A stretch of 64,000 bases of DNA, taken from the NCBI GenBank assembly GCA_038869515.1, contig JAWCQZ010000001.1, positions 277,079 through 341,078 of the forward strand, read 5' to 3'. Shown here piece by piece: positions 11,000 to 60,215 of this stretch (position 1 is the first letter of the stretch; each line of letters opens with the position of its first letter). The notes below the pieces were generated by a model. The model did no database searches, was not told the DNA's origin, and was given only the letters and a program-made list of their open reading frames with translations. The position numbers and the translations under genes were made by a program. The stretch is from JAWCQZ01 sp038869515 [NCBI: Halobacteria archaeon]. GTDB taxonomy: Archaea; Halobacteriota; Syntropharchaeia; JACQPP01.

Positions 11000-11021
11000 G
11001 TCTCCAGGGGGGTTTCTCTCC

Positions 11022-11987: not shown

Positions 11988-12021
11988 TGCGATGGCGGGC
12001 GCGGTCCGCAGAGCATTGACT

Positions 12022-12048: not shown

Positions 12049-12082
12049 CCAAACTTATACGCTCTCGAAGAGAGGGGGGGCC

Positions 12083-12628: not shown

Positions 12629-12635
12629 GCCGCCG

Positions 12636-12977: not shown

Positions 12978-12984
12978 TTGGACC

Positions 12985-44381: not shown

Positions 44382-44394
44382 GACCAAAGGTCCG

Positions 44395-44595
44395 CTGGAA
44401 AAACAAATCAAACTCCCCCGTGCGGCGCTCTTCCACCTCGCCCTCAACCCCGACCCGCGGAGGCAGCCGCCGCCCCCGCCCCCCCGGTCGCTCTCGGTCC
44501 TCCGGCGCCGCTGCGACGGGCTCCTGGAGAGGGACCTGCGGAGCGTCGAGGAGGTCTTCATCTCCAAGCGGGTCGTGGCCGTCGCCGAGTCGTAA
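44395..44595 (+). CDS. Coding-like small frame of unclear start
   Basis: From 44395 to the TAA at 44593-44595 the frame has almost only G or C at third positions and reads as a plausible 66-residue protein (LPRAALFHLALNPDP near the start, EEVFISKRVVAVAES at the end). No ATG, GTG or TTG opens it; a CTG at 44395 is the best candidate. It directly follows uL30. Either an unusual start is used, or a base is missing upstream, or the coding signal is coincidental. Confidence 0.35.
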   Translation: MEKQIKLPRAALFHLALNPDPRRQPPPPPPRSLSVLRRRCDGLLERDLRSVEEVFISKRVVAVAES

Positions 44596-44619
44596 TCCCG
44601 GCCCGCGACGGACCACCTC

Positions 44620-44625
44620 TTATAT
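44620..44625 (+). promoter_or_regulatory. TATA box of the PAC2 gene
   Basis: TTATAT, centred 26 bases before the ATG at 44648. Confidence 0.55.
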
Positions 44626-44647
44626 CCCCGCGAGCCGATTTTTCACC

Positions 44648-45514: not shown

Positions 45515-46600
45515 ATGGTCCGCGACCTCCCGGACTCCCCCCGCGCCCCCCATTCCTGTCCCCCGGGAGGCGATACAGGCCAGATCAGCCTCGACTTCCT
45601 CTTCGGCATCGTCCTCTTCCTATTCGCCTTCACCTACGTGATTCTCTTCATCCCCGGCCTCTTCTCCCCCTTCGACACCGAGAGCGACGTCACGACCCTT
45701 CAGGGGGACAAGACGGCCATCTGGCTGGTGGAGGAGAAACTCGCGGACGACAAGAGCCGGCCCGGAGTCGTCAACCTGAGCAAGTTGACGGCCTTCATGG
45801 CGGAACTGAACGGCACCGACACCCAGAAGACCCTGCTCCGGCAGGAGGCGGGGCTCATCTCCGACATCCGGAGGCTCGACCTCAACGTGAGCGTGGACTG
45901 GCTGAACGGCACCGTGAACACCAGCGGGAACGCGACGCCGTCCAGCACCTCCGTGGGCCAGACGCGGCGCGTGGTCAAGGTGGTGAACGTGAGCCTGAAT
46001 GAATCCGGCATGTCCGGCCATCCACTCATCCACGAGGTGTTCACTTCGACCTCCGCCGACGCCGTGGTGCTGTTCAACCCCGCCAAGGACCCGGTGGACC
46101 TCGCCCGGTGGCGCCTCACCGACGGCGAGCAGAATCTCACCTTCCCGAACGCGACCCTTATTGGGCCGCGCGGCTTTCTGACCATCGTGCGCGGCAGCGC
46201 CTCCTCCTTTGTCCGTGGGTGCACGCCCGATCTCGAACTGGTCCAAGCGGGCTCCGTCAACTCCGATGCCATCCCGAATATGGTCAACGCTACGACGGCC
46301 GCCCCGTGGTTCGACTTGGACAGTGCCGACGAGGTCTGCCTCTACAACCACCGCGGAAACCTCACGGACGCAGTGAACATCGGCGCCGGTGGCGACGACT
46401 GCGGGGACGGCGGCGCGACCCGGACGCTGAGTGGCGCAAACCTGCCCCCCTTCACCTCCGACCTCTCGCAGCGCCGGGTCAACCCCGGGATCGAGGGAGC
46501 CGAGACCGACGAGACCGACGAGAACTGGGCGTCGTCCTTCGGCGTCTTCACCCCCTCCTGCCCTGCGACCGAGGCGGTCATCTCGGTCAGGGTGTGGTAG
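45515..46600 (+). CDS. Pilin-like surface protein, cassette 1 gene A, with lamin-tail domain
   Basis: 361 residues. The start GQISLDFLFGIVLFLFAF (residues 22-39) resembles archaeal type III signal peptides: a G-Q-x-S-x-D/E-F motif followed by a hydrophobic helix. Residues 40-165 are rich in N-x-S/T sequons. Residues 168-340 look like a lamin-tail domain (HEVFTSTSADAVVLFN, LARWRLTD and GFLTIV). Signal-peptide class and fold are inferred from motif and pattern. It is the first gene of the cassette and the counterpart of 54690-55697. Confidence 0.75.
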   Translation: MVRDLPDSPRAPHSCPPGGDTGQISLDFLFGIVLFLFAFTYVILFIPGLFSPFDTESDVTTLQGDKTAIWLVEEKLADDKSRPGVVNLSKLTAFMAELNGTDTQKTLLRQEAGLISDIRRLDLNVSVDWLNGTVNTSGNATPSSTSVGQTRRVVKVVNVSLNESGMSGHPLIHEVFTSTSADAVVLFNPAKDPVDLARWRLTDGEQNLTFPNATLIGPRGFLTIVRGSASSFVRGCTPDLELVQAGSVNSDAIPNMVNATTAAPWFDLDSADEVCLYNHRGNLTDAVNIGAGGDDCGDGGATRTLSGANLPPFTSDLSQRRVNPGIEGAETDETDENWASSFGVFTPSCPATEAVISVRVW

Positions 46601-46602
46601 CC

Positions 46603-47241
46603 GTGGCCCGCGGCGACTCGGGGCAACTCCACACCCTCGAGGGCTTCTCTGCTGCGGTGCTGATGATTCTCGTCCTCATCTTCGTTGTCCAGGCCACCTC
46701 CATCACCCCCCTCACCGCTTCCGCCGCCAACCTCCACGTCGAGGCTCAACTCCAGTTCTACGGGCGGGACATCCTGGCGGCTCTGGACGACCCATTCGTC
46801 GAGGGACCGTTCAACGGAACCCCGGGGAACCTCTCCATCCTGAAGTACGAACTGCTCCGCTGGGATGGCCAGGAATATGTGTGGAACGGGTCCCAGTATG
46901 TCCGCAGCGGCGCCTCCTCGGTCTCCGTCAACGTCTCCCCCATGTTCCGGCTCCTGTCGGGAGTCCTCCACCCCAACGGCATCGCCCACAACCTGGAGCT
47001 CATCTACATCAGCAACTCCTCGGGCGATCCCGCCCAGAAAAAGTGGATCTGGAACGGGAACCCCAGCCTGAACGCCATCTCCGTTTCCCGGACCCTCGCC
47101 CTCCACAACAACGTGACCGACATCTCCACCTTCAGCGCGTTCTATGACAATACCTCCATCGGGGACATCGACACCCGGACCTGCCCGCCCGGCTGCCTCT
47201 ACAACATCGTCGAGGCCCGCTTGACACTCTGGAGGCTATAG
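46603..47241 (+). CDS. Pilin-like surface protein, cassette 1 gene B
   Basis: 212 residues from a GTG three bases after gene A. The start GQLHTLEGFSAAVLMIL (residues 7-23) has a Gln-x-x-Thr-Leu-Glu pattern, the +5-type Glu typical of type IV pilins, followed by one hydrophobic helix and an extracellular domain with several N-x-S/T sites. It closely parallels gene B of the second cassette (SSQVLEGFAAGSLVIL), and I recall the same motif in haloarchaeal pilin-like proteins of this gene neighbourhood. Confidence 0.72.
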   Translation: MARGDSGQLHTLEGFSAAVLMILVLIFVVQATSITPLTASAANLHVEAQLQFYGRDILAALDDPFVEGPFNGTPGNLSILKYELLRWDGQEYVWNGSQYVRSGASSVSVNVSPMFRLLSGVLHPNGIAHNLELIYISNSSGDPAQKKWIWNGNPSLNAISVSRTLALHNNVTDISTFSAFYDNTSIGDIDTRTCPPGCLYNIVEARLTLWRL

Positions 47242-48647
47242 TGGCTCGCACCGGCTTCCGGAGAACGGGGGGCAAGGGAAAGTGGACTTGCGGGCGGGGG
47301 AAAGAGAGGACCCGACCCCTCCCCACCCCCGACAACTCGGCCCAACTCATCATCGTCACGGGATTCATCGTCGCCATCGCCCTCATCGCGGTGACCGTCA
47401 TGCTGAACGACATCATCTACGCCACCAACACCGCCTCCATTGAGACCCTCCGCTCGACCAAGTTCGACGCCGAGGAGGTCCTCGCCCTGGTCCGGCAAGA
47501 GGTCGCGTTCACCCGGAGGTCCGTCCCCGACGCAGACGGGCTGGCCCTCCACATGACCAACTTCACCCGCAACCTGTCGAAGCTCTACGGCGCCCGGGGC
47601 ATCGCGGTGGACCTGAACTGGAGCGGCGCGGTCTATGGGAACTCCGCGGTCCGGAACACCTCCTCCAGTCCGGCGGCCATTGCCTACTGCGGCGACGCCA
47701 GCCGCGGGGGGGCGAACGAGTCGGGCCTCAGAACGTGGATGACCGACCTGGGACTCAACTTCACGGATTACAGCTTCAACGGGAGATGCGACGACCAGAC
47801 CCACAGCGCCGCGAACCGGCTGTTTGTCAACCTGTGCCGGGGTTCGGTCACGACCGAGAACAACTGGCGATGCAACACCTCGGACCCCACTGTGGCCCTC
47901 AACGTCAGCACCGTCATCTTCGAGTTCGACCAGCTCTCCCCGAAGTACTCCATCGGCATCTACTCGAACCTCTACTGCGGCTCCACGGACAACGACTCCG
48001 TCGGCGGGAACTTCCTGAACCGGACCCAGTGCCAGACGCTCCAGAACTGGACCTATCTGGGGGGAACCCTCATCAAAACCGGAAGCAACGACACCTCCAG
48101 CCCCAACAACACCTCCATCCTCGACCTCTTCACCGTGAGCTACCACAACGCAGCGACGCGACCTCCGAACGCCGTCGCCATCGAGAGGCACGGCTTCGAT
48201 GTGCGGCGGGTCGTCACGGCCCCGGTGTCCGCAGGTTGCCTGGTCAACAACAGCACGACCGGAGCCCTCAAGAACGCCCCCAACGAGTCCCTGGTGAACT
48301 TCAGCCGGGGAGGCCTCGTCTTCCAGCGAGGGTCGAGTCCGCCCACCGTCCCGCCCAACCTCACCACTTACATCAGCGAGGCCGCGGACGACTGCGACCC
48401 GGTGGACCTGTGCGACTACGGGGGGACGGGGGTGTGCGGCATAGCGGTCAACTGGACCTACGGCAGCGGCAAAATCTACCACTTCCCTCACCTCCAGGGC
48501 GAGTTGCGCAACAGCAACCGGGTCATCATCAACGATCCGGACAACCTGCGGCCGATTTTCAATCTCTTCCCCCACGGGGGTGATTGCCGCATTGTCGTGA
48601 AGGTCTCTCTGGGGGGCGTGACCTATACGAGCACGCTCTACTGCTGA
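47241..48647 (+). CDS. Pilin-like surface protein, cassette 1 gene C
   Basis: 468 residues from a GTG overlapping the gene B stop (TAGTG). A basic N-terminus precedes the hydrophobic AQLIIVTGFIVAIALIAV helix (residues 34-51) and an extracellular domain with about 20 N-x-S/T sequons and paired Cys. It is much larger than its counterpart in cassette 2 (140 residues), which shares the RAQMLILMGLGV-like start. Function unknown; heavily glycosylated surface protein is likely. Confidence 0.72.
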   Translation: MARTGFRRTGGKGKWTCGRGKERTRPLPTPDNSAQLIIVTGFIVAIALIAVTVMLNDIIYATNTASIETLRSTKFDAEEVLALVRQEVAFTRRSVPDADGLALHMTNFTRNLSKLYGARGIAVDLNWSGAVYGNSAVRNTSSSPAAIAYCGDASRGGANESGLRTWMTDLGLNFTDYSFNGRCDDQTHSAANRLFVNLCRGSVTTENNWRCNTSDPTVALNVSTVIFEFDQLSPKYSIGIYSNLYCGSTDNDSVGGNFLNRTQCQTLQNWTYLGGTLIKTGSNDTSSPNNTSILDLFTVSYHNAATRPPNAVAIERHGFDVRRVVTAPVSAGCLVNNSTTGALKNAPNESLVNFSRGGLVFQRGSSPPTVPPNLTTYISEAADDCDPVDLCDYGGTGVCGIAVNWTYGSGKIYHFPHLQGELRNSNRVIINDPDNLRPIFNLFPHGGDCRIVVKVSLGGVTYTSTLYC

Positions 48648-48651
48648 CGCC

Positions 48652-49677
48652 ATGGACCCGAAATCCCGCCTCCGCACCGATTCATCGGGAGTCAGCACCG
48701 TCACCGGCTACATCATGACCTTCTTCATCGCCAGCATCATCCTCGGAATCACCATCCTTTCGAGCCAGACCTTGGTCTCCACCTACGGGGATGTCGTCGC
48801 GCGGAGGTCCCTGGAGACCATCGGGACAAACCTCGTCCTGCGCATCGTGCAGATGGACCGGGTGATCGCGTCGGCCGGGGCCAGTGCCAGCGACATCGCC
48901 GCGGTGAACACCACGATTGAGATTCCCCTGGAAGCCGGTAAGCAACCCTATACCATCGACGTCACAGACACCGCCCTGACCCTCCAAACGAAGGAGGGGT
49001 CCGCGACCCAGGTCAAAATCCCCCTCAACATCAGCACTCCGCTCATCGGCCGCACCATCTCCAGCGGGGGGGGAAAGTTGGACATGGTCTACGACCCGGC
49101 TCTCGGGAAACTCGACGTGGCCTACGAGGGGGGCGGGGCCGAGAACGCCCTCTACAACGCCACCAAGGGGGCCCCCGAGTGCGTCACGGGCTTCTCCCCC
49201 TGCACCGCAAAATCCGACATCATCAAGTCGAGGGACTCCATCGGAGGAACGGTGGAGCCGAATCAGCCAAATACCCTGGATGCCTGCACCGATGGAGCCG
49301 CGGGGGCCTACCAATCGGACGAATCCGTGGACCAGATCAAAATCACCGACCTCACGGACAACACTTTTACAACGGGGGATACGGTCCGGGTGGAGGTGAA
49401 GGTGTACTGCTTCACGTCTGGGACCTGCGGCAGCTCGGGGAACTGCATCGACGTCTTCTACACCACCGACGCCGCGAGCCCCTCCTGGTCCCAGCAGGGC
49501 TCCGCGTCACCCTGCGCCGCCGGACAGGGGTTCCAGACCCACGCATTCGCCTTCCCTCTGGGGAGCCCCGCAGGGACCCACGCGGTCCGGGGCGTCCTCC
49601 GCTACAACGAGGTTGCGTCGGCGTGCCCCGGGAGCGCCTGGAGCGACAAGGACGACGTCGCCTTCGTGGTTCGATGA
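48652..49677 (+). CDS. Pilin-like surface protein, cassette 1 gene D
   Basis: 341 residues. The N-terminal SSGVSTVTGYIMTFFIAS (residues 11-28) matches the DDRAVSSVMGYIMVMGI start of cassette 2 gene D. After one hydrophobic helix comes a beta-rich extracellular region with Cys pairs; the C-terminal 120 residues look like an Ig-type or CARDB-like domain (DNTFTTGDTVRVEVKVYCF). ATG at 48652 follows gene C by four bases, and the stop overlaps gene E (ATGA). Confidence 0.72.
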   Translation: MDPKSRLRTDSSGVSTVTGYIMTFFIASIILGITILSSQTLVSTYGDVVARRSLETIGTNLVLRIVQMDRVIASAGASASDIAAVNTTIEIPLEAGKQPYTIDVTDTALTLQTKEGSATQVKIPLNISTPLIGRTISSGGGKLDMVYDPALGKLDVAYEGGGAENALYNATKGAPECVTGFSPCTAKSDIIKSRDSIGGTVEPNQPNTLDACTDGAAGAYQSDESVDQIKITDLTDNTFTTGDTVRVEVKVYCFTSGTCGSSGNCIDVFYTTDAASPSWSQQGSASPCAAGQGFQTHAFAFPLGSPAGTHAVRGVLRYNEVASACPGSAWSDKDDVAFVVR

Positions 49678-50507
49678 CACAGGCCCGCAGCAGGAGGGTG
49701 GAGGGAACGTCCGGTGGGATGGACCGGGACGACCGGGCCGTCTCCGAGGTCGTTGGCTACCTCATCATCTTCGCCATCGTCATGCTCGCCATGAGCGTCA
49801 TCTATGTGAACTCGCTCTCGGCCATGCTGCGGACCGAGGAGCAGAGCTACCTGGCCAACGTGGACCAGAGTTTCAAAGTCATGTCCTTCAACATCAACCG
49901 CATCCTGGCGGGAAGCGCCCCCGCCCAGAGCATGGAGGTCCGGCTCCGGGACTCGACCATTTCCCTCCTGCAGAAGTCCACCCTGAACGTCTCCTGGATG
50001 AACCGGACCTCCGGCGGGAACGACACGACCGGCGTCGAGACCCTGGCCACCGTGGAGCACTATTTCCGGGACCGGAAAATCGCCTACGAGGGCGGGGGGG
50101 TCTGGACGAAGAGCCCCGACGGGGGGGTGGCCATGCTCTCCGCCCCGCCTTTCATCGTCGATAACACCACCGTCATCCCTTACGCCACTCTCTCTACGGC
50201 GAACACCTCCCGCTCCGGTCGCAGCCTTGTCCACGTTGAGTTAGAGGTCCCCTGCCGCGTCCTGGGCCAATGCGCGCCCCCGGTGGAGACGAAGATCAAC
50301 GCCACCCGGGTCACGCTCAACGTGACCAGCGAATATTGCGACGGGTGGAAGACCTTCTTCGAGAGGACCCTCGAGTTCGCCGCCGCCCACTTCGACGACG
50401 CCGACTGCGCGGACAACCGGGTCATCGCCAACGTGACCCGGCGGCTGAGCGGGGCCAACACCACCCTCCACCTCGCCGATGTCGCCATGCAGGGGAGCAT
50501 CCAGTGA
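49674..50507 (+). CDS. Pilin-like surface protein, cassette 1 gene E
   Basis: 277 residues. The start DRAVSEVVGYLIIFAIVM (residues 20-37) is the archaeal pilin-like D-R-A-V-S-x-x-x-G pattern. A conserved extracellular block follows: RKIAYEGGGVWTKSPDGG near residue 140. The same block recurs in the next gene and in cassette 2 gene E, so all three are paralogues. ATGA overlap with gene D. Confidence 0.75.
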   Translation: MTQARSRRVEGTSGGMDRDDRAVSEVVGYLIIFAIVMLAMSVIYVNSLSAMLRTEEQSYLANVDQSFKVMSFNINRILAGSAPAQSMEVRLRDSTISLLQKSTLNVSWMNRTSGGNDTTGVETLATVEHYFRDRKIAYEGGGVWTKSPDGGVAMLSAPPFIVDNTTVIPYATLSTANTSRSGRSLVHVELEVPCRVLGQCAPPVETKINATRVTLNVTSEYCDGWKTFFERTLEFAAAHFDDADCADNRVIANVTRRLSGANTTLHLADVAMQGSIQ

Positions 50508-50610
50508 CGCCGTCACCCCAGGAAACCCGCACGCCGGAGCGGGTGGCGGGCGTGAGGAGGGCACACCCTCCTCCCGCGGTGTGGTTTTCCCGGCCCGGAG
50601 GCAAGTGGGG

Positions 50611-52419
50611 ATGATGAAACAGCGGGGGGCCCGGGACGATTTCATCGGAGATTGGGACGGCGCCGAGGAGGTCATGGGGGTCCTCATGCTCCTGGGAATC
50701 TTCGCCATCTCCCTCGCGGTCATCTACGCCGGGGGGGTCCCATCTCTCCAAGCGAGCCAGTCCGGGGCGAGCCTCCAGCAGGTCGAGCAGGCGTTCACCG
50801 CCCTCGACTCGAAACTGAGCAAGGCGGCCCTCGGGGAGTCGCCGAGCCAGTCTGTGGAGGTCAATCTGGCCGGGGGAGCGCTCACGCTGCGGAACACCTC
50901 CTGGATGAACATCACTTTCAAGGACTCGGCCGGGACACTCATCGGCTGCATCAACGTCTCCCTCGGGACCCTTGAATACACGAAGGAGAACCGCACCATC
51001 GCCTACGAGAGCGGGGGGCTCTTCGCCAGATATCCCGACGGCGGTCAGGCGTTCCTCTCCCCCCCCGAGCTCCACTACGACGGAGAGACGCTGACCCTCC
51101 CTATCATCCAGCTCAACGGGACGGGCAGCCAGTCGGGGGCGGGGACCACCACGGTCCGCATCGACACCTCGAACCAGCCGGTGGTCTATTTCCCGAACGG
51201 CAGCGCCACCGGGTGCGGAACGAACGCCCTCAACCGGGTCAACCCGCTGGAGGAGGTCACGGTCAACGTCACCGTCCGGAGCGATTACTGGCAGGCGTGG
51301 GCCGCAGCGATGCGGCGCCAGACCAGCATCACCGCGTCCACGGACAACACGAACCAACTGGCGATCGCCCAGTTTGGCACCGAGACCGCCACCACGCCGT
51401 TCCAGCAGGGGGTCTTCGCCGCGACGGCGCTGAAGCTCTACAACTCGGCGGAGGTCTGGTCCTACAACTCCGCCACCCAGACTTGCGGCTCCGGCGCCCA
51501 GGAGGGGGATGTGGCCGCCGCCAATTCCATCGAACTGCAGAGCAGCGCCAAGGTTTACGGGAACGCCAGCACGGAGGGGACCATCACCCTCCGGAGCAGC
51601 GCGCGGGTGGTGGACGGCCCCAACCCCATCACCTCGGGCATCTGCAAGGCGGCCTCGGTGGTCAACGAGGGGGCCGGGTGCGACGGGGGCATCCAAGCTG
51701 CGGCTTCCATCTCCTCCATGCCCTCGGTGGACGGGACCGTCGCGAGCAAGATATCGAGCTACTCCGACCCCGCCGTGAACGAGAACGCGGAGAACGGCGC
51801 AGGGTGCGGAATTTCGGACTCCGATTTCGTGCTGAACCTCGGCAACAGCGCCTCCTGCACCCTCACGGCGGGGCAGTATTATGTCACCGAGGTGGACCTG
51901 GGCAACTCGGCGACCCTCATCCTCGACACCTCCGCGGGCGGCATCGACATCGCGGTGGACAACACCGGCGCCACATCCAAGTTCGATCTGGGCAACAGCG
52001 CCATCATCGAGGTGCGGGGGAGCAACAACAACCCCGTCAACTACTACCTGGACAGCGGTCTCAAACCCGCCCTCGCGAATTCCGCGAAATTGACCATGCA
52101 GAACGACGGCGGGGGCGGGGACGCCAACCTCCGCAACACCAGCCGCCACCGGGTGTGGCTCCACTCCGGCTCGGGCACGTGGACCATTGACAACAGCGCC
52201 TACTTCGTGGGCGTCATGTACGGGCCGAAGAACAACGTGGTGGTTCAGAACTCCGGGAAGGTGTGCGGCGCCCTCATCGGATACGCGGTGGACCTCAAGA
52301 ACTCCCAGAGGGTGGACTTCGACGTGAACCTGAAGAACGTCCAGCTCTTCTCCAGCGTCCCCCTGGTCATCCAGTACCTCCACCTCAGCGGGAACCGGCT
52401 GAACGTCACGCTGGGCTGA
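50611..52419 (+). CDS. Large surface protein with pilin-like start and N-S-A repeat ladder
   Basis: 602 residues from the ATG at 50611. One N-terminal hydrophobic helix (VLMLLGIFAISLAVIYAGG, about 22-40) and a gene-E-like domain with RTIAYESGGLFARYPDGG near residue 130 are followed, from residue 275, by about ten repeats of a strand-turn unit with N-S-A at the turn (LYNSAEV, LQSSAKV, LRSSARV, LGNSATL, LGNSAII, LANSAKL and others). This predicts a right-handed beta-helix or bactofilin-like stack outside the cell. It has no counterpart in cassette 2 and sits 103 bases after gene E. Confidence 0.72.
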   Translation: MMKQRGARDDFIGDWDGAEEVMGVLMLLGIFAISLAVIYAGGVPSLQASQSGASLQQVEQAFTALDSKLSKAALGESPSQSVEVNLAGGALTLRNTSWMNITFKDSAGTLIGCINVSLGTLEYTKENRTIAYESGGLFARYPDGGQAFLSPPELHYDGETLTLPIIQLNGTGSQSGAGTTTVRIDTSNQPVVYFPNGSATGCGTNALNRVNPLEEVTVNVTVRSDYWQAWAAAMRRQTSITASTDNTNQLAIAQFGTETATTPFQQGVFAATALKLYNSAEVWSYNSATQTCGSGAQEGDVAAANSIELQSSAKVYGNASTEGTITLRSSARVVDGPNPITSGICKAASVVNEGAGCDGGIQAAASISSMPSVDGTVASKISSYSDPAVNENAENGAGCGISDSDFVLNLGNSASCTLTAGQYYVTEVDLGNSATLILDTSAGGIDIAVDNTGATSKFDLGNSAIIEVRGSNNNPVNYYLDSGLKPALANSAKLTMQNDGGGGDANLRNTSRHRVWLHSGSGTWTIDNSAYFVGVMYGPKNNVVVQNSGKVCGALIGYAVDLKNSQRVDFDVNLKNVQLFSSVPLVIQYLHLSGNRLNVTLG

Positions 52420-52420
52420 G

Positions 52421-52822
52421 TCAGAACACCCGCTTCACTCCCGGAATCAGGTCGAAGTCCCCGTCCGCGGAGTAGATTTCCTTCACGCCCAGCCGCTCCA
52501 TCTGGGCGGCGATGACAAGGTCGTCCCAGAGGTCCCCGGAGAGACCCGTCTTCGCCTGAAGCGCGGCCGCGGCGGTGAAATCGGTGTAGAGGGTCTCGGC
52601 CTTCACAAGCGCCTCCAGGTTTTTCACCGCGGCCAGGAAGGTCGCCGTCAACCGCGGCTTCTTCTGCCTCCTCAGGTAGGCGGTCACCTGCTGCACGACG
52701 AGTGTGGAGGTCGCGGTCTCTTCGCCCCTCTCCACCCGCCGCACGATCTCGCGTGCCCGCAACCCGTGCCGGAGATCTCCCGCGAGGTGGTAGATGAAGA
52801 CGCTGGCGTCGATGAACCTCAT
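52421..52822 (-). CDS. PIN-domain protein, possible VapC-like nuclease
   Basis: 133 residues. The first catalytic Asp (Asp5 in RFIDASVFIYHL) and the later Asp100/Asp101 (GDLWDDLVIAA) and Asp120/Asp122 (YSADGDF) fit a PIN RNase. The expected Glu in the second motif is replaced by Gln (TLVVQQV). No antitoxin gene could be recognised upstream, although the ATG does overlap the end of a small open frame. It may be an inactive or antitoxin-less PIN protein. Confidence 0.75.
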   Translation of the reverse strand: MRFIDASVFIYHLAGDLRHGLRAREIVRRVERGEETATSTLVVQQVTAYLRRQKKPRLTATFLAAVKNLEALVKAETLYTDFTAAAALQAKTGLSGDLWDDLVIAAQMERLGVKEIYSADGDFDLIPGVKRVF

Positions 52823-52924
52823 TCAATCTCGCCCGGGGCGTTCTCGATGCCCCAAGTTTGACCCGACGAGGGCGGCGCGAATGCCGCGCCGCCGAGGGGA
52901 GTCCCGCGGCGACGGCGATGGACT

Positions 52925-52931
52925 CTTATAC
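52925..52931 (+). promoter_or_regulatory. TATA box of the second SCP2 gene
   Basis: CTTATAC, centred 24 bases before the ATG at 52952. Confidence 0.5.
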
Positions 52932-52951
52932 TCCTTGAGGGACCGGTGGCG

Positions 52952-53356
52952 ATGGCCGCGCCAGAACTCGTCCTCCCCCCGAAGCCCAACGGCCTCATCT
53001 CGACCATGAAGTTCGTCGTGGAGGCGAACCTCAAGGATCCGAAGAAGGCCGAGGCGGCCTCGAAGATGAACCTGGTGGCCTCGGTCGAGACCGACTACAA
53101 CACCACCGCCACCCTCCGGTTCAGGGACGGGAAAATCATCTTCGAGAACGGCGCCGCCTCCGACGCCGAGGTCCACATGAAGGGGGACTTCGCCACCCTC
53201 GCGAAGGTCACGGCCCGGGAGATGCACCCCCTGCGGGCGATGCTCACCGGGAAAATCAGGGTCAGTGGTTCGAAGTGGAAGGGAATGAAACTCCAGAAAC
53301 TCACGATTCTGCCGAAGGAGATGGCCCGGGACCGGAAGAGGAAGACGAAGTCCTAG
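52952..53356 (+). CDS. SCP2-like lipid-binding domain protein
   Basis: 134 residues from the ATG at 52952; a GTG two codons earlier is less likely given the TATA spacing. The fold matches the SCP2 family (IIFENGAASDAEVHMKGDF near residue 65 and LRAMLTGKIRVSG near residue 91). It is distinct from the SCP2 protein at 31698. Its TAG lies in a CTAG shared with the convergent hydrolase stop. Confidence 0.72.
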   Translation: MAAPELVLPPKPNGLISTMKFVVEANLKDPKKAEAASKMNLVASVETDYNTTATLRFRDGKIIFENGAASDAEVHMKGDFATLAKVTAREMHPLRAMLTGKIRVSGSKWKGMKLQKLTILPKEMARDRKRKTKS

Positions 53357-53979
53357 AGGCGGGCCTGCGAGAGCCACTCCGCCACCTCTCGCGCCGGCCC
53401 CTCCACGCCCTGCATCCAGACGTGGTCCCCGTCGAGCATCACGAGTCTCTTCGGGCCGGGGAGCCCCTCCACCCACGCCTTCAGTTTCCCGGTCGGGACG
53501 AAGGGGTCGCTCTTCCCCGACACGACGAGGACCGGGCAGGGCAGTCTGGCGGGGAACTTGAACAGGGAGACCGGCGGCGAGACCAGAGCCACGGCCTCCA
53601 CCCGCAGGTCGGAGGCGGCCAGCCGCGCCCCAATCCATGCTCCGAAGGAGTAGCCCGCCACGGCGACTCGCCGGAAACCCCGGGCGGCGAGGAAGTCGAG
53701 GGCCGCCCGGGCGTCTTCAACAGCCCCCCACTCTCGGGCTCCGTCGGTGTAACGGGGTTGAGTCGCGGCCCTCGCCCCCACGCCGCGGAAGTTGAACCGG
53801 AGGGTCGCAAAAGCGGGGGCGAGAGCCTCCTCCAGGGCGCCGACCACAGGGTCGTCCATGGAGCCGCCGTACCGGGGGTGGGGGTGGAGGAGGAGGGCTG
53901 CGCATTCGGAGCCCTCTGGAGTTCGCAAGACCCCCTCCAGGCGGAAGGGGCCGCCGGGGAAGCGGACGGATCCCGTCAC
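53353..53979 (-). CDS. Alpha/beta hydrolase
   Basis: 208 residues from a GTG overlapping the upstream stop (GTGA). Nucleophile Ser111 in GYSFG, Asp158 in SGKSDPF and His186 in GDHVW complete the triad, and HPHPRYGG near residue 32 is the oxyanion strand typical of the small dienelactone-hydrolase-like group. Substrate unknown. Confidence 0.82.
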   Translation of the reverse strand: MTGSVRFPGGPFRLEGVLRTPEGSECAALLLHPHPRYGGSMDDPVVGALEEALAPAFATLRFNFRGVGARAATQPRYTDGAREWGAVEDARAALDFLAARGFRRVAVAGYSFGAWIGARLAASDLRVEAVALVSPPVSLFKFPARLPCPVLVVSGKSDPFVPTGKLKAWVEGLPGPKRLVMLDGDHVWMQGVEGPAREVAEWLSQARL

Positions 53980-54539
53980 GACTTGAGGGCCAGGAGAACA
54001 AGGGCCAGGACCAGGCCCGCGTTCATCACCATGGAGAGGACCAGCACGATGTAGAGGACCGGCCGCTCCAGGGTGAAGACCTGCCTCCAGGTGGCTTCCC
54101 GCAGGGGCGGCGGGGGGGCGGAGGGCGGGGGCGCTTTCAGGAGGGCGGGGAGCCGGACGGTCCCCGCCTCGAAGTCGAACTCCAGGGGGGAGTAGGTCCC
54201 GCTCCGGTCCGCCAGGCCCGGGGAGACCGGGACGAGGAAGACCCCCTGGGGCCGCAGATCCACCTCCCGGAAGAAGGAGGCGGCCCCCACGAGGCGGTGC
54301 TTGAAGTTGTAGGCGTCCCCGGTGGACATCCTTCGCTGGACCTCCTGGAGATTGGGGAACCGGTCGTGCGATGCGACGGTCTCCCGGGCGGCCGCGGCGT
54401 AGGCCTCCAGGAACGCCTGGGCCACCCGGTTCATCTTGTTCGGGTAGCGGCTCTGGAAGAGGGCCCGGAACGACTCCAGTTCCACTTCGGCCCGGGGAGG
54501 AGCCGAGCCCTTCCACCGGGAGTAGCGGGCCTCCTCCAT
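53976..54539 (-). CDS. Tail-anchored protein of unknown function
   Basis: 187 residues from the ATG at 54539, selected because a TTTTAA-containing box lies about 26 bases upstream; longer frames to 54572 or 54599 would include that box. The N-terminal half is helical and charged, a Pro-rich linker follows (APPPSAPPPPLREA), and residues 158-187 form a C-terminal membrane segment, so the bulk faces the cytoplasm. It is translationally coupled to the hydrolase. Confidence 0.6.
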   Translation of the reverse strand: MEEARYSRWKGSAPPRAEVELESFRALFQSRYPNKMNRVAQAFLEAYAAAARETVASHDRFPNLQEVQRRMSTGDAYNFKHRLVGAASFFREVDLRPQGVFLVPVSPGLADRSGTYSPLEFDFEAGTVRLPALLKAPPPSAPPPPLREATWRQVFTLERPVLYIVLVLSMVMNAGLVLALVLLALKS

Positions 54540-54560
54540 CCCCCGGAAACAGCGGGCCCC

Positions 54561-54570
54561 ATTAAAAGCC
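54561..54570 (-). promoter_or_regulatory. TATA box of the tail-anchored protein gene
   Basis: GGCTTTTAAT on the minus strand, about 26 bases before the ATG at 54539. Confidence 0.55.
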
Positions 54571-54660
54571 ATTTCTTCCGACGCATCGCGATTCGGCACC
54601 CGCCCGTCCTCCGCGTAGGTCTCCGTGGAAACCGGGCGCCATCCATGGGTGAAAAATCGG

Positions 54661-54668
54661 TTTTATTA
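54661..54668 (+). promoter_or_regulatory. TATA box of the second pilin-like cassette
   Basis: TTTTATTA, about 26 bases before the ATG at 54690; the five downstream genes are adjacent or overlapping. Confidence 0.6.
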
Positions 54669-54689
54669 GGTGCAGAGAGAGAGAAGCGA

Positions 54690-55697
54690 ATGGGGAGCAA
54701 CGGGAGGGGCCACCTCCTCCATCGCGAGCCGCCCGACACGGAGTTTTCCTCTCGCCCCCCACTGGCCCGCGACGACCGGGCCGCCACGGCCGTGCTCGAC
54801 TTCCTCATGGGGTTCCTCGTCTTCACCCCCTCCCTCTTCTTCGTCCTCCAGGCCGCCCCCTCCCTCTACACCGCCTTCCAGCAGGACGAGGTCTCCCTCC
54901 ACCCGGTCGCCTACCGGACCTCGGTGGTCCTCGTAGAGGACCCCGGCCTCGCGGTGAACGGCTCCCTCAACGCCTCCGACTGGGAGAGCTATGTCTCCAA
55001 CGCGACCGCCATAGCCAGGGTGGGCCTCGCGAAGAGCCGGGACGACCCCAACCTCCTCACCCTCCCCAAAATCGGGGCCCTGCGGAACCTCTCGGCCAAC
55101 CTCTCCCTCGACAATCTGCGCGTCGAGTTGGGCATCAACGCGAGCCGCAACAACCCCCGGTACAACATTTCCCTCCAGCGGTTCGCGAGCAACAGCAGCA
55201 GGCCCCTCTACGCCACAGACCTGAGCGGGACGAGGCTCCTGGCCGTGGGCCATCCGGTGGCCGGCGCGGAGAACCGGGAGCGGGTGGAGCGCGTCGTGGC
55301 TCTGGAGGACCCGGCCGGCAACCTCTCCCGGTCCGGGAGCCTGAGCACGACGGACGCCGCGACCCAGGTGGACATCGCCACCTTCTCGGCGGTCCCCCCC
55401 GTGGCCTCCTTCACCGCCACCATCACCGGCAAGTGGGCCGACCCCCCGGCCGCGGCCCGCCTGAGGGTGAACTTCAACGGGGGTCCGGTCGAGTATGACG
55501 CCAACATCCCTCCGGCGGCGGACGGAGACCTCATCAAGACCCACGACCTCACCGCGGCCCTGAACGCCTACCCTGCCGGGATCCCGGTCACCATCGACAT
55601 CACCATCAAGAACACGCTGGGCTCCTACCTCCTGACCGGGACTGACCGGACCGGCGGCGGCCGGCCGGCGGGCAAACTTGTCGTGGAGGTGTGGTAG
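54690..55697 (+). CDS. Pilin-like surface protein, cassette 2 gene A
   Basis: 335 residues. ARDDRAATAVLDFLMGFL (residues 26-43) is a pilin-like D-R-A-x-x-A-V-L-D-F start followed by a hydrophobic helix; it parallels the G-Q-I-S-L-D-F-L-F-G start of cassette 1 gene A. The rest is beta-rich with several N-x-S/T sites, but lacks the lamin-tail region of its counterpart. It is promoter-proximal in a five-gene unit. Confidence 0.7.
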   Translation: MGSNGRGHLLHREPPDTEFSSRPPLARDDRAATAVLDFLMGFLVFTPSLFFVLQAAPSLYTAFQQDEVSLHPVAYRTSVVLVEDPGLAVNGSLNASDWESYVSNATAIARVGLAKSRDDPNLLTLPKIGALRNLSANLSLDNLRVELGINASRNNPRYNISLQRFASNSSRPLYATDLSGTRLLAVGHPVAGAENRERVERVVALEDPAGNLSRSGSLSTTDAATQVDIATFSAVPPVASFTATITGKWADPPAAARLRVNFNGGPVEYDANIPPAADGDLIKTHDLTAALNAYPAGIPVTIDITIKNTLGSYLLTGTDRTGGGRPAGKLVVEVW

Positions 55698-56249
55698 ATG
55701 GCGAGCCCGCCTCCGCCGGCCGCCCGAAGGGCGACGATTCTCTCCCGCGACGACCGGGGGAGTTCCCAGGTCCTGGAGGGCTTCGCGGCGGGCTCCCTCG
55801 TCATCCTCGCCCTCCTCACCGTGGCCCAGACCAAGTCGGTCCTCGTCCCCCTCTCGGAGCAGACCCTCGACGTGAACCTCGAACTCGCGGGCAAGGACGC
55901 CCTCTACGCCATCGGGGACTCCCGGCTCGCCGCCCTGGTGGGCGAAATCAACACCTCCTATGCGGTCCCGTCCAACTTGAGCGCCGAGGTGGCGAACCTC
56001 CTCCCCGCCCGCGCCCGGGCGAACTACTACCTGGGGTTCGTGAACAACTCCACGGGGCTGGTCCACTACCGGAGCCTCTCCCCCTACGTCCGGCCCCCCG
56101 AAAACGGGGTCACCGTCCGCCACTATCTCGTCCTCTACAACGACCAACTGGCCAGCACCTCGCCCCTCAAGGTCAACCTGAGCAACGAGTCCTCGGGCTC
56201 CACCCTGCCCCGCGCGGCCCTCCTGGGCCTGGAGCTCTGGTGGCTGTGA
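55698..56249 (+). CDS. Pilin-like surface protein, cassette 2 gene B
   Basis: 183 residues. DDRGSSQVLEGFAAGSLVIL (residues 18-37) mirrors the GQLHTLEGF start of cassette 1 gene B, with the same L-E-G-F core. One hydrophobic helix then an extracellular domain. ATG follows the gene A stop directly (TAGATG). Confidence 0.72.
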   Translation: MASPPPPAARRATILSRDDRGSSQVLEGFAAGSLVILALLTVAQTKSVLVPLSEQTLDVNLELAGKDALYAIGDSRLAALVGEINTSYAVPSNLSAEVANLLPARARANYYLGFVNNSTGLVHYRSLSPYVRPPENGVTVRHYLVLYNDQLASTSPLKVNLSNESSGSTLPRAALLGLELWWL

Positions 56250-56668
56250 ACGGTCCCCTTCCCCGGGACGACAGGGCGCAGATGCTGATCCTCATGGGTT
56301 TGGGCGTCACCCTCGGCCTCGTCGCCGCGGCGGTCTTCCTGAACGAGATCGCCCTGACCGGCTTCCTGACGACCCAGTCGGAACTCACCTTCCCCAAGAG
56401 CGCCATACGGGACTTCCGCCTCCAGGCGGTTGCGGCGGTCAAGTCGGCGGCTCAGCGAAGCGCCCACGACCCGGCCACATTCACATCCGTCATGTCCAAC
56501 GCGAGCACCGAACTGGGAAAACTGGCCGCCCTCCAGGGAGCCTACCTGGAGATTCGGACCAACCCGGTCGTCTTCGAGGGCCAGACCACCTTCTCGAGCG
56601 TGTCCCTCACCGTCATCTACGACGACGCCGGCGTCCTCTACGAGTCCACGGAGGCGGTGGCCGCATGA
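56246..56668 (+). CDS. Pilin-like surface protein, cassette 2 gene C
   Basis: 140 residues from a GTG that overlaps the gene B stop (GTGA); an in-frame GTG two codons earlier is also possible. DDRAQMLILMGLGVTLGLVA (residues 9-28) matches the A-Q-L-I-I-V-T-G-F start of cassette 1 gene C. It is a compact version, without the long sequon-rich domain of its counterpart. Confidence 0.72.
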   Translation: MNGPLPRDDRAQMLILMGLGVTLGLVAAAVFLNEIALTGFLTTQSELTFPKSAIRDFRLQAVAAVKSAAQRSAHDPATFTSVMSNASTELGKLAALQGAYLEIRTNPVVFEGQTTFSSVSLTVIYDDAGVLYESTEAVAA

Positions 56669-59415
56669 GCGGCTTTCGGGCGGACGACCGGGCCGTCTCC
56701 TCGGTGATGGGCTACATCATGGTCATGGGAATCCTGGGGACCTTCGCCACCGTGGCGATGCTGGGGAGCGGGGGCGCCCTCCATCCCGGGATCCCCGCCA
56801 TGCAGAGCGAGTTCGAGGACGTGGCGAACTATGTGGCGGCCCAGGTGATGGACACCTATATCGTCTCCCCGCCGAGCAAGGGGACGCTGAACTCGACGCT
56901 TAAGATCCCCTTCACCATCGGCAACCAGCACTTCTCCGTGAACTTCGCGGATGCGGGGGACGACCGCGAAATCCGCGTCACGAACCTCGGGGAGTCGGTG
57001 GACGCCCGGGTGACGCTGTCCGGAGTCGTGCGCAGCGTCCCGGTCTCCGGCTCCATCTCCAGTTCCACCGGCGGAGGGAAGGTCTCCTTTTCCATCTCCA
57101 AAACCACGCCTCCCGTGGCTGTGGCCCGGGTCTACCCCCAGAGTGTCAAGGTCGGGAAGAACGTCACCTTCGACGGGACCCTCTCCACGGGGGAGGCGCC
57201 CCTCACCTTCCGGTGGACCTTCGGGGACGGGACCAACTCCTCCCTCGCCAAGCCCGTGAGGAGCTACTCGGTCGCCGGCAACTACACCGTGAACCTGACG
57301 GTCACCGATTCCAGCGGAGCCCAGGCGAGCGACACGGCCACGGTCCAGGTGACGAACGTCGCTCCGAGCCCCTGCCTCGAGTATGACAAGGCGGTGACCC
57401 CGGCCAACATCACCCCCGGGGGGACCGCCACCATCACCCTCTCCCTCTTCGGGTGCGGCGAGTCCACCCAGGAGCGGAAGGCCGACGTGGCCCTGGTTCT
57501 CGACACCTCGGGGAGCATGGATCCGGCAGACGTGGGGGACGACGGGTACACCAACATCAACACGACCCTCGGGACCGTGGCCCCGGCGAAGTTCACCCAC
57601 ACCTTCGCGGTGGCTTCGGGAGTGAGCAATCTTGAGGTCACGGCCCGGCACGACGGCGCCGCCACCTGCGGCGCGGGATTGTCGTGCGACATCGAGTTGT
57701 GGGTCGAGGACCCCTCGGGGACCGCAACCCGGGCCCAGACCACCGGGACCACATCGGAGACATTCACCCTCGCCAACCCCGCCGCCGGGAACTACACGGC
57801 CCACGTGGTCGGCAACTTCCCCGTCGGCTCCCAGGCGGTCCGGGTTTTCGTCAATACCACCGCCTTGACCCTCGCCCAGACCATCTCCGACAGCGTGTCC
57901 GCCGGGGGGGTGGACACCCACTCCTACAACCTGGGCGGCTCCCCGGCCTCCTTCCGCATCGAGGTCGCCAACGTGGGGGGGACCAGCGACCTCGACGGCT
58001 GCCAGAACCGGACCGGGGGCCTCACCTGGGGCTCCTCCTGCACTTCCTCGGGCAGCGGCTGGACCCACTTCCCCAACAGCCTCTCCCCCAACGGGGAGTA
58101 TGTGGAGGTCTCCTCCCCGGCCACCGGGTGGTGGGGGGTGAGGGTCCGCGGGGACTTCTCCAGCGGCAGCCAGAACTACGACCTCAAGTTCTACACGGGC
58201 TCGACCTCCTCCACCTCCGTCACAGGGACCATCATCGCCAACACGACCGCCGTTTTGAACCGGAACTACACCTCGGTCCAGGAGAACCTCACGAGCCTCT
58301 CCTACTTCCGGGTCGAGGCCCTCGCCGTCAACGGGAGCAAGGCCCTGGTCCTCTGGACCTACGATGCCGGCGCGGGGACCTGGAGCAGCGACTCCACCAG
58401 CCCCTACCGGTTCACGAAGACCTCGGCCAGCGGGGACTACCGGGCCTACGTGGTGGCCGACTTCGCCACGGGGACCCAGAACGCCACCCTCGCCGGCCAG
58501 GAGGCGAAGATTGACGCCGCGAAGATTGCGAGCCACATCTTCATCGGCCTCCTCAACAACTCCACCGACAAGTCCGGCCTCGTCCAGTTCCCCGACTCCC
58601 AGAACGTGAACGCCAGCACCATCAGCGACTCCTGCGACGCCGTGAACCGGACCCTCCTCAGCAGCGACCACTCCACGACCCGGGCGACCATCCTGGCTCT
58701 CTCCGCCGAGTTTGCCACTCCGTCCGGCTACGCACTCCGCGTCGGTCAGCGGCAACTGACCGCCCTCAGCAAGTTTTACCAAGGGAACGCGTCGGAGAAG
58801 AACAACACCAGCGCGGTCATCGTCTTCGTCTCCGACGGCGAGCCCACCCGGGGCTTGCCCACCGCCTGCAGCAGTTCCGGGTCCACCCCGGTGGCGCACG
58901 GCCTCCAGGAGGCCACCGCGGCCAAGAGCAACGGCACCGTCATTTTCACCATCGCCTTCGGGACCGACGCCAACGTAAGCTTCATGCGGGACGTCGCCTC
59001 GGAGCCCTCCTACGCCTTCGTGGCGGCGTCGGCGGAGAACCTGAAGAACATCTACGAGACCATCGCCCGGACCCTGAAGGAGATCGCCGCTTACGACGTC
59101 ACGGTCCAGGACACCCTGCCCGCGGGAGTCACGCCCGTCAATTCGACCCTTCCCTCCAATACTACGTTCATCTCCAACGCCAACGGGACCACGACCCTCA
59201 AGTGGACCTACAGCAACGTCAAGATCAATGAACTCAAGTCCATCCAGTTCCAGGTCACCGTGACCAACTCCTCCCTCTCCACCATGAACGACTACGCCAA
59301 CTCCTGGGTCTCCTGGGACGTCTGGCCCCAGGGCGGGGGCTACTCGACCTCCAACTTCCCCCAGACCAGCGTCACCATCACCACCCTCTCCGGCGGGGGG
59401 GTGACCGTGGGATGA
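56665..59415 (+). CDS. Large pilin-like adhesin, cassette 2 gene D: PKD plus interrupted VWA domain
   Basis: 916 residues. Residues 7-32 are the pilin-like start (DDRAVSSVMGYIMVMGILGT). A PKD domain (151-232) contains WTFGDGT. A VWA domain opens at 275 with the metal-site motif DTSGS (280-284), but is interrupted by about 330 residues holding three repeats, each ending G-x-Y/W-x3-V-x-G/A-N/D-F-x2-G-S/T-Q (near 375-390, 488-503 and 590-605). The VWA resumes near 613 with SDGEP at 723-727. A DUF11-like beta domain closes the protein (810-905). Likely a surface adhesin, ATGA-coupled to genes C and E. Confidence 0.8.
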   Translation: MSGFRADDRAVSSVMGYIMVMGILGTFATVAMLGSGGALHPGIPAMQSEFEDVANYVAAQVMDTYIVSPPSKGTLNSTLKIPFTIGNQHFSVNFADAGDDREIRVTNLGESVDARVTLSGVVRSVPVSGSISSSTGGGKVSFSISKTTPPVAVARVYPQSVKVGKNVTFDGTLSTGEAPLTFRWTFGDGTNSSLAKPVRSYSVAGNYTVNLTVTDSSGAQASDTATVQVTNVAPSPCLEYDKAVTPANITPGGTATITLSLFGCGESTQERKADVALVLDTSGSMDPADVGDDGYTNINTTLGTVAPAKFTHTFAVASGVSNLEVTARHDGAATCGAGLSCDIELWVEDPSGTATRAQTTGTTSETFTLANPAAGNYTAHVVGNFPVGSQAVRVFVNTTALTLAQTISDSVSAGGVDTHSYNLGGSPASFRIEVANVGGTSDLDGCQNRTGGLTWGSSCTSSGSGWTHFPNSLSPNGEYVEVSSPATGWWGVRVRGDFSSGSQNYDLKFYTGSTSSTSVTGTIIANTTAVLNRNYTSVQENLTSLSYFRVEALAVNGSKALVLWTYDAGAGTWSSDSTSPYRFTKTSASGDYRAYVVADFATGTQNATLAGQEAKIDAAKIASHIFIGLLNNSTDKSGLVQFPDSQNVNASTISDSCDAVNRTLLSSDHSTTRATILALSAEFATPSGYALRVGQRQLTALSKFYQGNASEKNNTSAVIVFVSDGEPTRGLPTACSSSGSTPVAHGLQEATAAKSNGTVIFTIAFGTDANVSFMRDVASEPSYAFVAASAENLKNIYETIARTLKEIAAYDVTVQDTLPAGVTPVNSTLPSNTTFISNANGTTTLKWTYSNVKINELKSIQFQVTVTNSSLSTMNDYANSWVSWDVWPQGGGYSTSNFPQTSVTITTLSGGGVTVG

Positions 59416-60215
59416 CGCGCGCTCGGGATTCCCTGGAGGCCGACGATGCGGGCGTGTCGGAAGTGGTGGGGCAACTGCTCATTTTCACCATGGTCATCAT
59501 CTCCGTGAGCGTCGTCTACTCCGCCGGCCTCCCTATCCTCAGCGGCTCCCAGGATGCCATCCAGTTCGAGGCCACCCGCCAGGGGTTCCTCGTCCTCCAG
59601 TCCGACGTGAACAAGGCCCTCTACGACCAGTCGCCGGTGAAGACGACCCTCCTCCAGATGGGGGGCGGGTCCCTGAGCCTCGGCACCGGCGGAACCCTCG
59701 GCGTCCTCGCCATCAACGCCTCCGGGGGGGCGGTCTACTCCACCTCCCTGAACCTGACCCACGTCGAATATCTCCAGGGGGACCGGCGCATCGCGTTCTC
59801 CAACGGGGGCGTCCTCGAGATGCATCCGGACGGCGGCGTCGTCCGGTCCCCTCCGAAACTGTTCGTCTACGAGGACGTGAAGAACGGCGAGGTGGTCCTG
59901 GCCGCCTCCCTGAGCCGCCTCCGGAACGCCACCAACACCACCACCGGGGTGAGCGGGAAGGGGGCCGTCCGGGTCCAGGCCGCCTACAACTCCACCAACG
60001 TCACCCTCTTCGAGAGCGGGAGCGGCCGGGTCCACCTGAACTTCAGCGCCCCGGTCTACTACCCCGCCTGGAGGAACTTCTTCAACGACATGCAGCGGAA
60101 GTTGAACAACACGGCCGCCGTGGTCATCGCGGGCGTGGACGAGGAGATCAACGTCACGGTCTACTACGACAAGTTGCAACTCACCGAGCACGTGGTGGAC
60201 CTGCGGCTCTCCTGA
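59412..60215 (+). CDS. Pilin-like surface protein, cassette 2 gene E
   Basis: 267 residues. DDAGVSEVVGQLLIFTMVII (residues 11-30) parallels cassette 1 gene E. The conserved RRIAFSNGGVLEMHPDGG block near residue 120 is shared with the two cassette 1 paralogues. ATGA overlap with the adhesin gene. It ends the second cassette. Confidence 0.75.
   Translation: MTRARDSLEADDAGVSEVVGQLLIFTMVIISVSVVYSAGLPILSGSQDAIQFEATRQGFLVLQSDVNKALYDQSPVKTTLLQMGGGSLSLGTGGTLGVLAINASGGAVYSTSLNLTHVEYLQGDRRIAFSNGGVLEMHPDGGVVRSPPKLFVYEDVKNGEVVLAASLSRLRNATNTTTGVSGKGAVRVQAAYNSTNVTLFESGSGRVHLNFSAPVYYPAWRNFFNDMQRKLNNTAAVVIAGVDEEINVTVYYDKLQLTEHVVDLRLS

What the first reader, a model, noticed from the sequence alone, without database searches (positions are those of the whole stretch)
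45515..60215. Two copies of a five-gene pilin-like cassette in the same order
At 45515-50507 and 54690-60215 five consecutive genes share matching N-terminal motifs in matching order: A (x-L-D-F-L-x-G-F), B (L-E-G-F), C (A-Q-x-L-I), D (V-S-x-V-x-G-Y-I-M) and E (V-S-E-V-V-G). The extracellular parts have diverged: gene C is 468 versus 140 residues, gene D 341 versus 916. That fits an ancient duplication, with each cassette's five distinct subunits forming one surface structure. I recall similar ordered sets of pilin-like proteins in haloarchaea; the arrangement as a duplicated five-subunit system seems undescribed.
Basis: partly seen in the sequence, partly recalled or inferred. Interest (0 to 1): 0.85.

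Follow-up and report, generated by a model that had tools for sequence, protein, structure and literature searches.

The report
Paired ancient archaeal pilin gene cassettes
An uncultured archaeon carries two neighbouring, same-order sets of genes for pilus (surface fibre) subunits that split apart long ago and sit side by side in some other archaea too; this is a known kind of pilus gene set in a paired form that I did not find described.

Summary
Genes A-E at 45515-50507 and 54690-60215 match Pfam DUF7287, DUF7288, DUF7261 (weakly), DUF7266 and DUF7289 in the same order. A-D counterparts are mutual best matches; the three E-type proteins match one another best. The similarity survives removal of the membrane helix. 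Correction: cassette 1 has a sixth gene, a long second E (50611-52419).

The order recurs in Halobacteriota: 32 of 40 chosen neighbourhoods. A tree of 46 cassettes splits 100/100 into two classes, with one window cassette in each; a recent local duplication is rejected (p-AU 0.0003). In five other genomes class I is followed by class II with 97-119 bases between; in the window about 2.3 kb lies between.

So these are two old, coherently inherited pilin cassettes of a kind already described (euryarchaeal multi-pilin type IV pili, PMC4858521). I did not find the two-class pairing in the text I searched. Position D gained VWA, lectin, Ig or PKD domains in four lineages, so I favour a minor-pilin tip complex with D presenting adhesins. 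That is inferred; C is also often enlarged.

The parts
45515..46600 (+). A1: class I pilin, DUF7287, with a C-terminal Lamin Tail Domain
46603..47241 (+). B1: DUF7288 pilin (GTG start at 46603 or 46594, not certain)
47241..48647 (+). C1: DUF7261-like pilin, long form; start uncertain
   Evidence: (below Pfam cut-off)
48652..49677 (+). D1: DUF7266 pilin with about 180 residues of unidentified extension
49674..50507 (+). E1: DUF7289 pilin; start overlaps the stop of D1
50611..52419 (+). E' (sixth gene, called F1 in the scripts): second DUF7289 pilin with a DUF7305 domain and a weak bactofilin match
54690..55697 (+). A2: class II pilin, DUF7287, long form
55698..56249 (+). B2: DUF7288 pilin
56246..56668 (+). 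C2: DUF7261-like pilin, short form (GTG start 56246 or 56240)
   Evidence: (below Pfam cut-off)
56665..59415 (+). D2: DUF7266 pilin with PKD and VWA domains and PPC-like stretches (below cut-off); overlaps C2 and E2 by 4 bases
59412..60215 (+). E2: DUF7289 pilin
60462..62381 (-). TadC/T2SSF-like membrane platform protein, convergent with cassette 2 (Pfam T2SSF 21.3 bits, below cut-off; strong TadC relatives beside ATPases)
62339..64000 (-). Pilus assembly ATPase (T2SSE); the frame runs off the window end; relatives are longer, with a cysteine-bearing N-terminal part

Best explanation
The locus holds two ancient, coherently inherited pilin cassettes: class I (A-B-C-D-E-E') and class II (A-B-C-D-E). 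They descend from duplication of a whole five-pilin set before the sampled lineages diverged. Their products have a short leader ending in Gly or Ala before a hydrophobic helix, so a prepilin peptidase is expected to process them, and a PilB/TadC pair, perhaps the convergent one next door, would pull them from the membrane into a type IV pilus-like filament. My favoured mechanism is that each cassette makes a heteromeric minor-pilin complex that starts and caps the filament, with D as a modular subunit presenting adhesive domains (VWA/PKD in the class II D here). Two cassettes would give two alternative tips or two pili. Shown: identity, order, ancient split, coherent inheritance, domain gains at D. 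Inferred: processing, complex formation, tip location, adhesion, pairing with the adjacent ATPase.
For: Pfam identities in the same order; best-hit pattern that survives helix removal. Order kept in 32 of 40 chosen neighbourhoods from 37 genomes. Two classes at 100/100 support, one window cassette in each; all five single-gene trees place win1 on the class I side and win2 on the class II side at their best split, and 10 of 10 profile comparisons agree, E2 only narrowly (134.5 v 128.0 bits). Sister-pair tree rejected, p-AU 0.000268. Class I directly followed by class II in L159, L160, L161, L165, L166. Start/stop overlaps at D1/E1, C2/D2, D2/E2. Position marks shared by both classes: A Asp at +5 in 44 of 44 readable rows, B Glu at +6 in 46 of 46, C Gln at +1 in 46 of 46, E acidic at +3 in 42 of 46 (numbering assumes cleavage after Gly/Ala). 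In the 46 tree cassettes large extensions fall at D in 5, C in 2, A in 1, E in 1, B in 0; D carries VWA, PKD, Ig or LamG domains over Pfam's cut-off in four lineages. Streptococcus sanguinis pilins predicted at the tip carry VWA and ConA-like lectin modules (PMC9934059, passages).
Against: No experiment and no usable structure (E1 model mean pLDDT 45). Position C is enlarged too: beyond the tree set, C exceeds 400 residues in 6 of 14 pilin-bearing loci (up to 907) and B reaches 593 in one; of five such proteins scanned only one has even a weak Ig match, below cut-off. The ATPase/TadC pair stands without A-E genes in 10 of 10 loci of its relatives, and in the closest relative found (G535) the ATPase lies on another contig, without TadC, so its adjacency here may be accidental; 24 of 30 genomes with a close ATPase relative (over 380 bits) have family A against 136 of the other 216 (my count over), a modest, kinship-confounded excess. 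The order is rearranged in 4 of 40 loci and in 3 of 14 later ones. Makarova et al. suggest that all such pilins may be filament components. The single-gene split is weak for B (one row misplaced, support 50) and E (one misplaced, 44). win2 is a long row of unusual composition. Some D rows on both sides have an acidic residue at +6, so D is not uniformly like a capping subunit without Glu5.
Confidence: 0.46

Rival explanations
1. Each cassette encodes the shaft itself: A-E, or a major pilin among them, co-polymerise into a heteropolymeric filament, and the two cassettes make two different pili.
For: This is what Makarova et al. 2016 propose for the multi-pilin clade 2 systems (PMC4858521). A and B keep an invariant acidic residue at +5/+6, as shaft pilins do (recalled).
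Against: D2 (916 aa) and other large D, C and E' proteins are bulky for a shaft position; a strict one-of-each set kept through a whole-cassette duplication looks like a fixed complex. Neither point is decisive.
Confidence: 0.29
2. The cassettes form a pseudopilus of a type II-like secretion device that, with an ATPase/TadC pair, exports or displays surface proteins rather than making an adhesive pilus.
For: The best solved-structure match of the ATPase is named a type II secretion system protein (2oap); five pseudopilins also serve the type II system (abstract of PMC6211770 in the listing).
Against: No secretin or other dedicated secretion gene was noticed beside the cassettes (the whole window was not scanned for one); archaea mostly lack the outer membrane that the type II system serves (passage of PMC12448462); adhesin-type domains are fused to D.
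Confidence: 0.13
3. Recent tandem duplication of one cassette inside this lineage, followed by fast divergence.
For: Nearness and shared order; adjacent class I doublets exist in L153-L158.
Against: The two window cassettes lie in different 100/100 clades; forcing them together costs 91.75 log-likelihood units, p-AU 0.000268.
Confidence: 0.02
4. Chance: generic hydrophobic N-terminal helices that look alike.
For: Weak C-gene Pfam matches and a weak A1-A2 pairwise score of 9.9 bits.
Against: Helix-free tails match only their own family, above all 550 shuffled tails; the order is kept in 32 of 40 loci.
Confidence: 0.01

Closest known systems
Euryarchaeal clade 2 multi-pilin type IV pili (Haloferax volcanii PilB4-type, Makarova et al. 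2016)
   Same: Several distinct pilins in one locus, among them a signature minor pilin said to be prone to duplication and of variable length (which fits E and E'). In two named haloarchaeal loci (L171 Halospeciosus, where C was not detected, and L191 Halosimplex) an ATPase gene lies upstream on the same strand.
   Different: Here two cassette classes lie together; the neighbouring ATPase is closest to a separate group (about 50% identical relatives with a cysteine-bearing N-terminus, like the description of subclade 4F) and is convergent, not upstream.
H. volcanii pilB1-C1 operon / clade 4C (PMC6491452)
   Same: PilB/TadC pair with clade 2 pilins in one operon, needed for full adhesion (introduction and passages read).
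   Different: Whether its pilins are A-E was not tested here; the window ATPase is not shown to be clade 4C.
Streptococcus sanguinis tip pilins PilA, PilB, PilC (PMC9934059, passages)
   Same: Modular pilins: VWA on PilB and a ConA-like lectin on PilC, predicted at the pilus tip; the same two domain kinds occur at archaeal position D (VWA in window D2 and L180; LamG/ConA-like in L192).
   Different: No sequence homology shown; bacterial; three minor pilins, not five.
Bacterial HIJK priming complex (GspHIJK, FimU-PilVWX)
   Same: A fixed set of different minor pilins that act together.
   Different: No sequence relation seen; subunit correspondence unknown.

Membership tests
Archaeal clade 2 multi-pilin type IV pilus loci (Makarova 2016) | Locus with several distinct pilin families including the signature duplicating minor pilin | tested here: inconclusive
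   Five families A-E with E doubled as E'; equating E with arCOG02911 is my inference, arCOG numbers could not be mapped to Pfam here
Archaeal clade 2 multi-pilin type IV pilus loci (Makarova 2016) | Associated ATPase of clade 2 | tested here: inconclusive
   The window ATPase is 45-51% identical to the ten relatives whose loci I fetched, and only 26-28% to three cassette-adjacent ATPases in L171, L172, L191; no clade-labelled tree was built
Pfam DUF7287, DUF7288, DUF7266, DUF7289 | Score over the curated cut-off | tested here: met
   All eight proteins A, B, D, E are over the cut-off
Pfam DUF7261 (C) | Score over the curated cut-off | tested here: not met
   C1 23.9 and C2 17.1 bits against 27; C profiles made without the window give 68.0 (C1, class I) and 60.0 (C2, class II)
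Type IV pilins | Class III leader: short N-terminus, Gly/Ala before a hydrophobic helix | tested here: met
   Seen in all ten A-E proteins by sequence and hydropathy and in E' by eye; five of the ten lack Arg/Lys just before the Gly/Ala, and no leader predictor was run; cleavage not shown
Type IV pilins | Processed by prepilin peptidase and built into a filament | not testable with these tools
   Needs proteomics of surface fractions
HIJK-type tip complex | Sequence or fold correspondence with H, I, J, K | tested here: inconclusive
   The profile of the three window E proteins finds nothing in the PDB up to E 10; the model was too poor for a fold search; A-D were not tested
Subclade 4F secretion ATPases | Extra variable cysteine-rich N-terminal domain | tested here: inconclusive
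   Three relatives checked have 5, 6 and 11 Cys in their first 350 residues; the window's own N-terminus lies beyond base 64000

The most novel reading that the evidence does not exclude
The class I and class II cassettes are an ancestral euryarchaeal pair of complete minor-pilin tip complexes, an archaeal counterpart of the bacterial HIJK priming complex, with position D as an exchangeable adhesin socket, so that one assembly engine can cap pili with two different tips.
Probability: 0.28. Interest if true: 0.72.

Novelty: new variant of a known kind. Interest (0 to 1): 0.45.

Why it matters
How archaea start and cap type IV pili is poorly known. A five-part set that keeps its order and its position-specific marks through an ancient whole-cassette duplication hints at a fixed heteromeric machine. 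It names a gene (D) to look at first for adhesion and gives a clear test in cultured relatives that carry the same cassettes. It would also give five Pfam families of unknown function a shared role.

Tried and rejected
Structure of E1 from the three window E proteins gave pLDDT 45 and was not searched. Placing the organism: an S5 tree leaves it on a long unplaced branch. Thermoplasmatota, my first guess from G+C, gave family A in 0 of 292 (Pfam-level sensitivity). Conservation of the site next to S5/L30: no A-E gene at E 1e-5 in the 80 S5 loci L001-L080, many of them short. The adjacent ATPase as engine: not upheld in relatives. Class II in the closest relative G535: a D2 search found nothing (which warns that an empty answer shows nothing; the assembly is fragmented).

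Rows against or outside the pattern. Of the 40 loci (37 genomes), L174, L175, L182, L183 read E-D-A(-B-C), L171 and L190 lack a C hit, L177 is cut by a contig end, and in L168 the B frame starts before A although its pilin part lies after it. Sixteen more loci were fetched later and are not in the tree; L234 and L236 hold only the ATPase. Of the 14 with pilins, nine read A-B-C-D-E (L239-L242, L244-L248; L247 with a split A), L233 and L237 are cut by contig ends, and L235, L238, L243 are rearranged. In G332 the two classes lie on different contigs (L242, L243). Labels by gene count do not match the clades fully: L180 (six) sits in class II; L163, L167, L191, L192 (five) sit on the class I side, and L181 (six) is a very long row there.

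Literature: searches on the DUF names (no paper), archaeal pili, arCOG numbers (one paper), minor pilins and VWA, Methanosarcina pilins and cassette/duplication terms. I saw only the listings and the papers named next, no figures and no supplements, so Makarova's supplementary loci may show such pairs. PMC4858521: abstract, four sections, passages. PMC6491452: introduction and passages. PMC4292770, PMC12448462, PMC9934059, PMC4371748, PMC12369344: passages only. Others: listings only.

Full report
Observation. The window is archaeal: S5, L30, PAC2, RFC and FttA genes by Pfam. Pfam gives the same five families in the same order in both cassettes: DUF7287, DUF7288, DUF7261 (below cut-off for both C proteins), DUF7266, DUF7289. 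Cassette 1 continues with a sixth gene, a long second DUF7289 protein with a DUF7305 domain.

More than chance? Among the 11 pilins, A-D counterparts are reciprocal best hits at 9.9, 20.7, 21.0 and 15.7 bits; E1 and E2 score 73 bits with each other but both are slightly closer to E'. With the helix removed, profiles made from other genomes only recognise each tail as its own family; no other tail exceeds 3.4 bits and the best of 550 shuffled tails reached 8.8. Those outside rows were gathered by searches seeded with window proteins around Pfam hits, so Pfam is the more independent witness.

Elsewhere. Family A is found in 160 of 246 genomes of the phylum of G013 (an Archaeoglobaceae genome by its locus title), in 0 of 292 of the phylum of a Thermoplasmata genome, and among 14 control genomes only in Haloferax volcanii. 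I fetched 40 neighbourhoods from 37 genomes (chosen, not random) and assigned genes with iterated profiles. 32 of 40 hold at least one A-B-C-D-E run on one strand, 44 complete cassettes in all. The other eight are a permuted order (four), no C hit (two), a contig end (one) and one overlapping-frame case. Of 14 further pilin-bearing loci fetched later, nine keep the order, two are cut and three are rearranged (not used in the tree).

Two classes. A concatenated tree of the 44 plus the two window cassettes (852 columns) splits 100/100 into a class II side (16 rows plus window cassette 2) and a class I side (28 rows plus window cassette 1). At their best split all five single-gene trees place the window genes the same way, with support A 94, B 50, C 75, D 99, E 44; 10 of 10 profile comparisons agree, E2 narrowly. 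Holding the two window cassettes together is rejected (p-AU 0.000268), with the caveat that win2 is a long row of unusual composition. Each cassette is thus inherited as a unit, and the split is older than the divergence of the sampled lineages; the root is not inferred. The contrast in C length is a class mark (median 276 versus 127 residues from the helix), as is A (149 versus 314).

Pairing. Both classes are neighbours in six of the 40 loci. In five (L159, L160, L161, L165, L166) class I is followed by class II on the same strand with 97-119 bases between; L159, L160 and L165 are close relatives in the tree. The sixth, L164, has a rearranged class II before class I. In the window the same I to II order holds with about 2.3 kb between, occupied by a PIN-domain gene, an SCP2-family gene, an alpha/beta hydrolase gene and a frame for a small membrane protein seen by eye. 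Class I doublets occur in L153-L158 (43-173 bases apart).

Subunit marks. Counting from the presumed cleavage after Gly/Ala, A keeps Asp at +5 in 44 of 44 readable rows, B Glu at +6 in 46 of 46, C Gln at +1 in 46 of 46, E an acidic residue at +3 in 42 of 46. Both classes share them, so the five subunits were differentiated before the duplication.

Position D. In the 46 tree cassettes, extensions of over 120 residues above the class median occur at D in 5, C in 2, A in 1, E in 1, B in 0. D2 of the window carries PKD and VWA domains and PPC-like stretches below cut-off, with a DxSxS motif at residue 280 and SDG at 723 (that these are metal-site motifs is recalled). L170 (Methanoperedenaceae) D has Ig-type domains, L192 (Halosimplex) PKD plus a LamG lectin domain, L180 VWA (L180's D was assigned by the iterated profile, not by Pfam). 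D1 of the window has an extension without a Pfam match. Against a special role of D: in the later loci C exceeds 400 residues in six of 14 and reaches 907, and B reaches 593 in one; of five such proteins scanned, L244 C has weak Ig matches below cut-off, L238 B matches only DUF7288 and three match nothing. VWA and ConA-like lectin are the modules of S. sanguinis PilB and PilC (passages of PMC9934059). This is the main reason to prefer a tip complex with D as adhesin carrier; it is an analogy, not a test.

Engine. The convergent ATPase (open to base 64000) and TadC have relatives elsewhere as a pair (ATPase 45-51% identical in the ten loci fetched). In 10 of 10 such loci no A-E gene is near. 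Three relatives checked carry 5-11 cysteines in their first 350 residues, like Makarova's description of subclade 4F. The closest relative found, in G535 (63% over 429 residues), lies on a 12-kb contig without TadC or pilins, while that genome's class I cassette lies on two other contigs (A-B-C and C-D-E-E'). The link of this engine with the cassettes is therefore suggested only by adjacency in the window.

Known or new. Makarova et al. 2016 describe multi-pilin euryarchaeal loci, an ancestral doubling of the ATPase system and a signature minor pilin prone to duplication; H. volcanii pilB1-C1 is needed for full adhesion. The kind is thus known. The two coherent cassette classes, their pairing across genomes and the domain gains at D were not found in the text I saw. 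I rate it a new variant of a known kind.

Noticed in passing
window 62339-64000: The pilus ATPase frame is open to the window end; relatives have several hundred more N-terminal residues with cysteines, so the gene is cut by the window.
   Followed up: partly
window 45515-46600: Pilin A1 carries a Lamin Tail Domain at its C-terminus (Pfam 2.3e-11), which I would not expect on a pilin.
   Followed up: no
window 50611-52419: E' ends in a DUF7305 domain with a weak bactofilin match; E' in L153 has DUF7308 and the separate long E in L192 has VWA, so the C-terminal part of E' is exchanged too.
   Followed up: partly
window 52421-52822: PIN-domain (VapC-like) gene between the cassettes; no antitoxin gene recognised by eye just upstream.
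   Followed up: partly
L174, L175, L182, L183: The cassette is permuted to E-D-A(-B-C); G009 (L174, L175) is a Methanocellales genome by its locus title.
   Followed up: no
L164 about 10754-14114; L243 about 8050-11280: Class II cassettes (by length) in the order C-D-E-A-B in two genomes (G342, G332), as if circularly permuted.
   Followed up: no
L244 6043-8766, L237 3574-5946: Very long C pilins (907 and 790 aa) with no domain over Pfam's cut-off.
   Followed up: partly
window 43197-45439: S5 and L30 are followed by a PAC2-family gene and then the pilins; I saw no L15 or SecY gene after L30 (by eye only).
   Followed up: partly
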